DNA of 64,000 nt from Actinomycetospora succinea. Lineage in GTDB: Bacteria > Actinomycetota > Actinomycetes > Mycobacteriales > Pseudonocardiaceae. The notes below the pieces were generated by a model. The model had not been told where the DNA came from and searched no databases. It saw only the letters and a program-made list of their open reading frames with translations. Below, piece by piece: positions 27,045 through 28,512 of this stretch (position 1 is its first letter; each line of letters begins with the position of its first letter). The translations under genes were made by a program, and so were the position numbers. The stretch lies in contig NZ_SNYO01000004.1 in the NCBI RefSeq assembly GCF_004363095.1, forward strand, positions 124,001 to 188,000. Direction: 5' to 3'.

Positions 27045-27071
27045 GGGTCGAGCTCCGCTCCGCTCCGTCTC
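27045..27071 (-). repeat. Dispersed 27-bp element, copy A (between fumC and ligB)
   Basis: On the plus strand it reads GGGTCGAGCTCCGCT-C-CGCT-C-CGTCTC. It starts right after the fumC stop codon and lies 12 nt before the ligase start, so it may also contribute to the ligase leader. Confidence 0.85.
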
Positions 27072-27072
27072 C

Positions 27073-28512
27073 CTAGCTGTCGACCCGGGTCATCGCCAGC
27101 ACGTCGAGCGCCGTGTCGAGCTGCTCCTGGGTGAGGCGCCCGTCCTGCACGTAGCCCTCGGCCTCGATGACCTCGCGGATCGTCTTGCGCTCCTTCATCG
27201 CCTGCTTGGCGATCTTCGCCGCCTCCTCGTAGCCGATGAGGCGGTTGAGCGGGGTGACGATCGCCGACGACGACTCGGCGTAGCGGCGGCACGCCTCCTC
27301 GTCGGGCTGGGTGTTCTCGAGGACGCGGTCGGCGAGCAGGCGCGCCGCGGCGGCCAGCAGGCGGCACGACTCGAGGACGTTGTAGCCCATCACCGGCATC
27401 ATGACGTTGAGCTCGAGGTTGCCCTGGCTGCCGGAGAACGCGACGGTCGCGTCGTTGCCCATGACCTGGGCGGCGACCATCATCGCCGCCTCACAGATCA
27501 CCGGGTTGACCTTGCCGGGCATGATCGAGCTGCCCGGCTGCAGGTCCGGGATGCGGATCTCGGCGAGGCCGGTCGACGGGCCGGACGACAGCCAGCGCAC
27601 GTCGTTGGCGATCTTGTAGACGCTCACCGCGACGGCCCGCAGCGCGCCCGAGGCCTCGACGAGCCCGTCGCGGGCGCCCTGCGCCTCGATGTGGTTGCGA
27701 GCCTCGGCGAGCTCGGGGATGCCGGTCGACTGCCGCAGCTGCTCGACGACCTTGCCGCCGAAGCCCTCCGGGGTGTTGATGCCGGTGCCGACCGCGGTGC
27801 CGCCGATGGGCAGCTCGGCGAGGCGGGGCAGGACGGAGCGCAGACGCTCGACGCTGTGCTCGGCCTGGCTCGCCCAGCCGCCGGCCTCCTGGCCGAGGGT
27901 GATCGGCACGGCGTCCATGAGGTGGGTGCGGCCGGCCTTGACGACGTGGCGCCACTCGTGGGACTTGCGGCCCAGCACCTCGCCGAGGTGCTCGAGCGCG
28001 GGCACGGTGTCGCGCACGATCGCCTCGGCCGCGGCGACGTGGATGGTCGTCGGGAACACGTCGTTGGAGCTCTGCGAGGCGTTGACGTGGTCGTTCGGGT
28101 GGATCTTCTGCCCGGAGGCCTTCGACGCCAGGGTCGCGATGACCTCGTTGGCGTTCATGTTCGAGCTGGTGCCCGAGCCGGTCTGGAAGACGTCGATCGG
28201 GAACTCGGCGTCGTGCGCCCCCGACGCCACCTCGTCGGCCGCGGCGGCGATCGCGTCGGCGTGGGCGGCGTCGAGCACGCCGAGGTCCTTGTTGACCCGC
28301 GCGCAGGCGCCCTTGACCAGGCCGAGCGCCCGGATCTGGGCGGGCTCGATCGGACGGCCGGAGATCGGGAAGTTCTCGACGGCGCGCTGGGTCTGCGCGG
28401 CCCACAGCGCGGCGGCCGGCACCCGGACCTCGCCCATGGTGTCGTGCTCGGTCCGGTACTCCTCCTGGATGGGTCGAGCTCCGCTTCGCTGCGTCTCCTG
28501 CTCCTCGGTCAT
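27073..28512 (-). CDS. fumC: Class II fumarate hydratase
   Basis: The 479-residue enzyme has [12 protein letters not shown], the [13 protein letters not shown] loop, and the superfamily signature [11 protein letters not shown]. It interconverts fumarate and malate in the TCA cycle. The N-terminus is about 10 residues longer than usual before [11 protein letters not shown], because repeat copy B (28471-28497) is translated as ETQRSGARP. The transcript is probably leaderless: AAGACT (28525-28520) lies 7 nt before ATG 28512. Copy A of the repeat follows the stop, so the gene is flanked by direct repeats. Synteny matches Rv1098c beside glpX. Confidence 0.95.
28471..28497 (-). repeat. Dispersed 27-bp element, copy B (inside fumC N-terminus)
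   Basis: Plus strand GGGTCGAGCTCCGCT-T-CGCT-G-CGTCTC. It differs from copy A at two positions and is in frame in fumC, encoding about nine residues (ETQRSGARP) of the N-terminal extension. Confidence 0.85.

What the first reader, a model, noticed from the sequence alone, without database searches (positions are those of the whole stretch)
27045..28497. A dispersed 27-bp element read in frame inside genes and flanking fumC
The element GGGTCGAGCTCCGCT-N-CGCT-N-CGTCTC occurs at 27045-27071 (directly after the fumC stop), 28471-28497 (inside the fumC N-terminus as ETQRSGARP) and 46580-46606 (in the P450 loop as RDGAQRSSTRT). All three read the same way relative to the genes. fumC normally begins near EHDTMGEV with no such extension; in the P450 the insertion falls in a permissive loop between the I and K helices. 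Its length (27 bp, a multiple of 3) allows spread through coding sequence. This resembles in principle the in-frame Rickettsia palindromic elements, but I know of no such element described in this genus. fumC is flanked by direct copies.
Basis: partly seen in the sequence, partly recalled or inferred. Interest (0 to 1): 0.8.

Follow-up and report, generated by a model that had tools for sequence, protein, structure and literature searches.

The report
Tiny mobile hairpin repeat in genes
A DNA element of about 36 letters appears to have jumped to dozens of sites in Actinomycetospora bacteria, often landing inside genes without breaking their reading frame, which would make it one of the smallest mobile elements proposed so far; how it moves is not known.

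Summary
The three 27-bp copies are real; the genome carries 83 (<=3 mismatches; reversed control 0). All 18 Actinomycetospora genomes searched have it, 1 to 155 copies each. The finding's own refutation tests fail: copies are many, and 41 of 63 sites compared with a relative are empty there, 22 of them by exactly 36 bp.

It is not palindromic in the RPE/REP sense. Positions 4-5 and 22-23 co-vary (GA/TC, CA/TG, CG/CG), supporting an imperfect hairpin. The two free letters fall in the modelled loop and bulge. The loop occurs in three sizes, one filled by a second repeat, B. Copies well inside genes lie 33:4 in one orientation. In that orientation 12 of 79 copies end 0-2 nt before an ATG with GGAG suitably spaced, so the element could supply a ribosome-binding site. 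At shared sites the core changes less (9/240) than its neighbours (47/190).

No Y1 (RAYT/IS200-type) transposase was found in 18 of 18 genomes; reverse transcriptases were absent from 14 of 18, including the two richest. Closest known kind: the very small mobile repeats (SDRs) of Nostoc (recalled). Mechanism unknown.

The parts
27045..27071 (+). short form (A, 26-27 bp core), intergenic between the fumC stop and the next minus-strand gene
   Evidence: orthologous 21-mer form in G008, no copy there in the other 16 of 18 fumC loci
28471..28497 (+). short form (A) inside the fumC N-terminus, read on the minus strand as ETQRSGARP
   Evidence: also in G013; no copy in the other 16 of 18, of which 8 show a directly alignable empty site and 8 have a different N-terminus
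28459..28494 (.). 36-bp unit absent from the alignable empty fumC sites (boundaries uncertain by several bp)
46580..46606 (+). short form (A) inside a P450 ORF, 1 mismatch
   Evidence: same site occupied in G008; by resemblance of flanks also occupied in G003 and empty in G001
34173..34218 (-). long form (A with loop module B, 46 bp), upstream of an ORF (34274-35272, +) that I take for ispH by reading
   Evidence: coordinates derived from the B motif at 34193-34207
34193..34207 (-). module B core CCTATCGGCGTGCTC in the loop of the long form
   Evidence: motif (<=1 mismatch) in 18 of 18 genomes
27073..28512 (-). fumC, host gene of the 28471 copy
46179..47459 (-). ORF with P450 match, host of the 46580 copy (start not determined)

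Best explanation
The element (A) is a very small mobile element, gained as a unit of about 36 bp: a 26-27 bp core that can fold as a bulged hairpin in single-stranded DNA or RNA, plus about 9 weakly conserved bp. SHOWN: it is dispersed, its copy number differs up to 155-fold between congeners, sites are occupied in one species and empty in another, two stem positions are kept paired by changes on both sides, and the loop differs between copies (3, 8 or about 26 nt, the last holding a second repeat, B). SHOWN by counts, cause inferred: inside genes it is found almost only in one orientation, and in that orientation it also stands just before ATG triplets more often than on the other strand. INFERRED: the hairpin is recognised in trans by an unidentified host or mobile-element enzyme, which inserts a copy imprecisely (no regular target duplication, a weak excess of short flanking direct repeats) with a weak taste for C-rich target sites. 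Selection then keeps insertions that leave frame and protein intact (36 = 3 x 12, hydrophilic peptide in the surviving orientation) or that supply a Shine-Dalgarno sequence (GGAG-CTCGACC-ATG). The core is then held constant in place, by selection or by gene conversion between copies. Local arrays of about 35-39 bp period, usually with the same N letters inside one array, come from secondary tandem duplication.
For: Copies: 83 in own genome, reversed control 0; 18 of 18 congeners, 1-155 copies, control 0. Empty sites: 17 of 17 G007 sites tested are empty in G016; of 19 G012/G003 copies 12 empty, 6 occupied (1 by the longer form), 1 unclear; of 16 own copies 9 empty in G008, 7 occupied (2 by the longer form); of 11 own copies of contig 4, 3 empty, 6 occupied, 2 undetermined. 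Pairing: 197 copies (orthologues included) with positions 4, 5, 22, 23 left free: (4,23) G-C 182, C-G 12, other 3; (5,22) A-T 189, G-C 3, G-T 2, A.C 3; (4,23) has the highest mutual information of all position pairs, 0.305 against 0.084 for the next. The same three pair types recur in the long form, 15 of 16 paired. Orientation well inside genes 18:2 (own) and 15:2 (G007). ATG 0-2 nt after the copy on the complement: 12 of 79 against 1 of 79 on the named strand. At 10 G000/G008 shared sites: core 9/240, N 8/20, adjacent 10+10 bp 47/190, farther flanks 336/3560.
Against: No enzyme is linked to it: Pfam Y1_Tnp 0 of 18 genomes; RVT_1 absent from 14 of 18 including G007 (155 copies), G002 (137) and the window genome, though G008 (118 copies) has three. 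No movement was observed directly; all comparisons are between species. Folding of the single element is not better than shuffles (z -0.32 to -0.98 as RNA, -0.32 to +0.84 as DNA), and outer pairs show no covariation. The 12 C-G cases may be few events that spread as a subfamily. No regular target duplication; direct repeats of >=5 nt in 68 of 175 against 39.8 expected, but >=6 nt only 16 against 12.0. Net differences vary (33-92 bp) and insert boundaries cannot be fixed to the base. 19 of 63 sites are shared, so not all copies are recent.
Confidence: 0.72

Rival explanations
1. A host-selected functional motif (binding site, translation signal or RNA-processing hairpin) that arises and decays at many places without being mobile.
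For: Core is conserved in place (9/240 against 47/190 for neighbours); copies stand before ATG with a spaced GGAG; stem positions kept paired.
Against: Site differences are whole units, 22 of 41 exactly 36 bp, not point-by-point gain; G016 has 1 copy and its nearest relative G007 155, so it is dispensable; many copies lie inside predicted genes.
Confidence: 0.13
2. A REP/RAYT-type or other HUH-transposase element.
For: Small, hairpin-capable, dispersed, no regular target duplication.
Against: Y1_Tnp not found in 18 of 18 genomes although 5 of 14 control genomes ring; not a clean palindrome. Head-to-head dimers were not looked for systematically and other HUH families were not searched.
Confidence: 0.05
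3. An RNA-mediated element copied by a reverse transcriptase.
For: Recalled proposal for Nostoc SDRs; loops and N letters differ at shared sites; G008 with 118 copies has three RVT_1 matches.
Against: RVT_1 found in only 4 of 18 genomes (3 over the cut-off) and in neither of the two richest. A past or distant enzyme is not excluded.
Confidence: 0.06
4. Spread by DNA repair or template switching at stalled hairpins, with no dedicated enzyme.
For: Imprecise ends, modest excess of short flanking repeats, tandem arrays, different loops at shared sites.
Against: Does not by itself explain why the same unit of about 36 bp is moved or why copy number is so uneven.
Confidence: 0.14

Closest known systems
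Small dispersed repeats (SDRs) of Nostoc punctiforme (Elhai et al. 2008, Genome Res; cited in PMC3116915, passages seen; the paper itself is not held; its content is recalled)
   Same: As recalled: 21-27 nt, dispersed, hairpin kept by compensatory changes, nested insertions, confined to a small clade, proposed mobile without known enzyme
   Different: Other phylum; here many copies inside genes in frame with a strong orientation bias, copies that could act as ribosome-binding sites, inserted unit about 36 bp, loop that can hold a second repeat. Sequences not compared
Rickettsia palindromic elements (passages of PMC10969869)
   Same: Inserted in frame in unrelated genes
   Different: About 150 bp in that review; palindromic; ORF with conserved peptide. 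Here about 36 bp, more than one frame used, intergenic copies common
GTAG and CGTC tagged REPs (PMC3733652, abstract and 12 of 27 passages)
   Same: 20-40 bp hairpins, many copies; CGTC class also lacks a known transposase
   Different: No occurrence of 'Actinobacteria' in that text, though it mentions untagged REP-like families in M. tuberculosis, which I did not compare. Unpaired tag plus 8-9 bp stem there; the CGTC letters here overlap the co-varying stem
Integron attC sites (recalled)
   Same: Bulged hairpin with conserved structure and variable loop
   Different: Not tested: no integrase search; here the hairpin alone is inserted, without a cassette gene

Membership tests
Very small mobile repeats (Nostoc SDR kind) | 21-27 nt dispersed repeat (criterion recalled) | tested here: met
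   core 26-27 bp (also 21 and 44-46); net unit mostly 36 bp
Very small mobile repeats (Nostoc SDR kind) | common secondary structure with compensatory changes (recalled) | tested here: met
   two stem positions only; folding energy not remarkable
Very small mobile repeats (Nostoc SDR kind) | presence/absence between relatives | tested here: met
   41 empty, 19 occupied, 3 undetermined of 63 sites compared
Very small mobile repeats (Nostoc SDR kind) | RNA intermediate (recalled as proposed) | not testable with these tools
   only indirect: RVT_1 absent from 14 of 18 genomes
Very small mobile repeats (Nostoc SDR kind) | sequence relationship to Nostoc SDRs | not tested
   SDR sequences not held
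Rickettsia palindromic elements | in-frame insertion in unrelated genes | tested here: met
   (genes predicted by my own script; few named)
Rickettsia palindromic elements | size about 150 bp (PMC10969869) and palindromic | tested here: not met
   about 36-bp unit; fold z near 0
REP/RAYT | RAYT (Y1) gene in the genome | tested here: not met
   Y1_Tnp 0 of 18
REP/RAYT | GTAG or CGTC unpaired end tag and clean stem | tested here: not met
   the CGTC letters overlap the co-varying stem; no clean stem
MITE | terminal inverted repeats and fixed target duplication | tested here: not met
   outer pairs at expectation; no fixed duplication

The most novel reading that the evidence does not exclude
A two-tier system of the smallest known transposing DNA: hairpins of about 36 bp that spread, without a resident reverse transcriptase or Y1 transposase, into genes and start sites, where they serve as portable in-frame linkers and ribosome-binding sites, and whose loop is a landing place for a second, even smaller module (B, about 23 bp) that also occupies the loop of at least one other hairpin family (GCAGCGAA arms).
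Probability: 0.25. Interest if true: 0.82.

Novelty: new variant of a known kind. Interest (0 to 1): 0.62.

Why it matters
Mobile elements below 50 bp are hardly known and their movement is unexplained. A family with 1 to 155 copies between close relatives, dozens of empty/occupied site pairs, a defined hairpin and different loops makes the question of how something this small moves directly testable. It also points to a route by which a repeat writes a ready 12-residue linker into proteins or supplies a new ribosome-binding site between genes.

Tried and rejected
Target-site duplication: lengths 4-8 at offsets 0-7 on 121 singletons; best z 3.6, few exact cases, no single offset. Sites that look like duplications (CCTGTCG at C4:204791, GATC at L203, CCCGA at L204) were set against mispaired controls: within 16 nt, >=5 nt in 68 of 175 against 39.8, >=6 nt in 16 against 12.0, >=7 nt in 5 against 3.8. 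Kept as a weak excess only.

REP/RAYT: rejected. Reverse transcriptase: not supported. Longer parent element around copies: BLAST of own loci against each other showed three pairs alike over about 70 bp around the element at 82-84% (L014/L026, L027/L286, L029/L261) and otherwise matches not centred on it. Phage carriage: 0 exact matches of A and of a 19-mer of B in viral contigs. Rfam: only a tRNA at 115-188 reached a gathering score in window, L189 and L336.

B as a module of hairpin loops in general: complementary arms of >=6 nt around B in 17 of 53 contexts against 16.2 in mispaired controls, >=7 nt in 10 against 5.4. So a general preference of B for hairpin loops is not shown; only the A arms and the GCAGCGAA arms are clear. 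I lowered the probability of the novel case from 0.3 to 0.25 for this.

Insertion bias by transcription as cause of the 33:4 orientation: not favoured, because copies between co-directional genes were 14 against and 11 with the genes by my reading of the table. But the gene caller is my own codon-usage script, start sites are uncertain, and the two runs class edge copies differently. 79 own copies were classed, of 83 found (pattern and mismatch limit differ slightly; a few places were not fetched).

Frame preference: 13/3/2 (own) but 6/2/7 (G007) for frames 1/0/2 among antisense internal copies, so no single frame is claimed.

Full report
WHAT WAS CHECKED. The three copies exist as described. 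The window is contig 4, 124001-188000, of a 6.47-Mb genome in 23 contigs. I take the genus to be Actinomycetospora, inferred from the named records that carry the element. In this genome the 27-mer occurs 83 times with up to 3 mismatches (45 forward, 38 reverse) and the reversed control 0 times.

DISTRIBUTION. All 18 genomes of the genus that are held have it; counts with up to 2 mismatches: 78 (own), 6, 137, 12, 15, 99, 32, 155, 118, 47, 45, 40, 76, 82, 90, 64, 1, 79 for G000-G017; control 0 in all; three of these genomes (G011, G012, G015) are under 90% complete. In 297 genomes drawn from the family it occurs, with up to 1 mismatch, in 19: the 18 of the genus plus one species of another genus with 3 matches. 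32 of 116 hold a full-length copy; of the 80 loci whose titles were shown, 21 do, 16 from Actinomycetospora and 5 from Williamsia.

MOBILITY. Copies were compared with relatives at the same place. G007 against G016, its nearest relative by the fumC region (92.8%): 17 of 17 sites empty (first 8 also). G012 against G015/G001 and G003 against G001: of 19 copies 12 empty, 5 shared, 1 occupied by a longer form, 1 unclear. Own against G008: of 16 copies 9 empty, 5 shared, 2 with the longer form in G008 (a 17th query locus found no partner). Own contig 4 against G008: of 11 copies 3 empty, 6 shared, 2 undetermined. Together 41 empty, 19 occupied, 3 undetermined of 63. The net difference is exactly 36 bp in 22 of the 41 (7, 7, 6, 2 of contig 4); in two more the local gap is 36 with another indel nearby (L219, L026). 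Others are 33, 35, 37, 38, 39, 60 (36 plus a 24-bp minisatellite change), 72 (two copies) and 92. At fumC the 5' copy is in G000 and G013 only and the 3' copy in G000 and G008 only, of 18. In coding direction the alignable empty fumC start reads ATG ACC GAG GAG CAG GAG TAC or close to it (8 species) and the occupied one has 36 more bases; the other 8 species have a different N-terminus. A named genome, Actinomycetospora sp. NBRC 106375, also has the 5' copy (L041); whether it is one of the unnamed 18 is not known.

ENDS. A precise boundary was not found. On the left a loose YCGAYG precedes the core (43 of 175 copies end in [CT]CGA[CT]G?; TCGA occurs in 23 of 175 within -10..-3 against 5 of 175 in a control stretch), and C is favoured at -11 and -10 (73 and 92 of 131). 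On the right CCG follows (124, 107 and 85 of 131). No regular target duplication exists; flanking direct repeats of 5 or more are in excess (68 of 175 against 39.8) but those of 6 or more hardly (16 against 12.0). Tandem arrays have a period of about 35-39 bp in the genus, and members of one array usually share the same N letters.

STRUCTURE. Counting from 0 at GGTC, positions 4-5 and 22-23 pair and co-vary. With those positions left free, 197 copies (orthologues included) gave GA/TC 179, CA/TG 9, CG/CG 3, other 6, and pair (4,23) has the highest mutual information (0.305, next 0.084). The model consistent with this is G4A5-T22C23 closed by G6C7-G16C17, a bulge 18-21 that holds N2 and a loop 8-15 that holds N1. 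The inner pairs hardly vary and the outer pairs show no covariation, so these are inferred. Folding energies of the single element are not remarkable.

A MODULAR LOOP. Beside the 26-mer there is a 21-mer (loop TCC; the orthologue of the fumC 3' copy in G008 is one) and a 44-46-mer whose loop holds a second repeat, B: CCTATCGGCGTGCTC-N3-TGGATG or similar. Three sites have the 26-mer in one species and the long form in another (L027/L367 and L030/L364; L321/L336). The long form shows the same stem covariation: GA/TC 10, CA/TG 4, CG/CG 1, unpaired 1 of 16. B also sits between different arms, GCAGCGAAC ... GTTCGCTGC (L189) and GCAGCGAA ... TTCGCTGC (L298), but over all 53 contexts read complementary arms of 6 or more are no commoner than in mispaired controls (17 against 16.2; 7 or more, 10 against 5.4). 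The 15-mer of B with up to 1 mismatch occurs 12-128 times in each of 18 genomes against 0-3 for the control.

PLACE IN GENES. By a codon-usage gene caller of my own, 49 of 79 own copies lie in a predicted gene and 30 between genes. Counting only copies with at least 60 nt of gene on both sides, the orientation is 18:2 in the window genome and 15:2 among 33 G007 copies classed. In the favoured orientation the coding strand reads GAGACGNAGCGNAGCGGAGCTCGACC. On that strand 12 of 79 copies are followed by ATG at 0-2 nt, against 1 of 79 on the other strand (within 0-8 nt, 17 against 6), several shortly after a stop codon. GGAG then stands 7-9 nt before the ATG, a usual Shine-Dalgarno spacing (established knowledge). 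That these ATGs are real starts, and translation from them, is inferred.

CONSTRAINT. At 10 sites shared by G000 and G008 the 24 fixed core positions differ in 9 of 240, the two N positions in 8 of 20, the 10 bp on each side in 47 of 190 and farther flanks in 336 of 3560 (the fumC 3' site was left out because its G008 copy is 5 bp shorter). So the core is held in place after insertion, by selection or gene conversion; inside genes protein constraint may contribute.

MECHANISM. What is shown is gain of a unit, a stem under pairing constraint, and different loops. What moves it is not known. Y1_Tnp is found in 0 of 18 genomes while 5 of 14 control genomes ring. RVT_1 is found in 4 of 18 (3 over the cut-off), among them G008 (118 copies, three matches), but not in the window genome nor in G007 or G002. 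Other transposases and recombinases were not searched. I favour recognition of the folded hairpin by an unidentified enzyme acting in trans, with repair-type template switching as the main rival.

COMPARISON WITH WHAT IS KNOWN. By size, structure, nesting and narrow range the closest kind is the small dispersed repeats of Nostoc (Elhai et al. 2008). I know that paper only from recall and from passages of papers that mention such repeats, since it is not held. RPEs and tagged REPs differ in defining features that were tested (membership table; PMC10969869 passages, PMC3733652 abstract and passages). Literature searches for six stretches of the sequence and of similar repeats, for Actinomycetospora repeats, for REPs with RAYT in Actinobacteria, for dispersed repeats in Actinobacteria and for SDR work listed no paper that describes this element, judged from titles and abstract starts. 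That is not proof that none is in print.

VERDICT. A real and, by presence and absence between species, recently mobile very small element: a new variant of the very small mobile repeat kind, with unusual use of coding sequence and start sites.

Noticed in passing
window 34173-34218 (-); L189, L298, L336, L363, L385-L414: Module B (CCTATCGGCGTGCTC-N3-TGGATG), a second small repeat found in the loop of the long form and between GCAGCGAA arms; motif in 18 of 18 Actinomycetospora genomes; in G004 it also recurs at 17-bp spacing.
   Followed up: partly
window 37651-38112: Tandem array of 15-bp units (family D1); not examined.
   Followed up: no
G007 against G016: Nearest relatives by the fumC region (92.8% identical) with 155 and 1 copies: a natural pair for finding the mobilising factor.
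   Followed up: partly
G008 contigs 11, 18, 43: Three RVT_1 matches in the genome with 118 copies; type not determined.
   Followed up: no
L051, L062, L068, L078, L087 (Williamsia): The same 26-mer, in at least three of these five loci (L068, L078, L087) as close direct copies of about 33-39 bp period, in another genus; origin (transfer or common descent) not tested.
   Followed up: no
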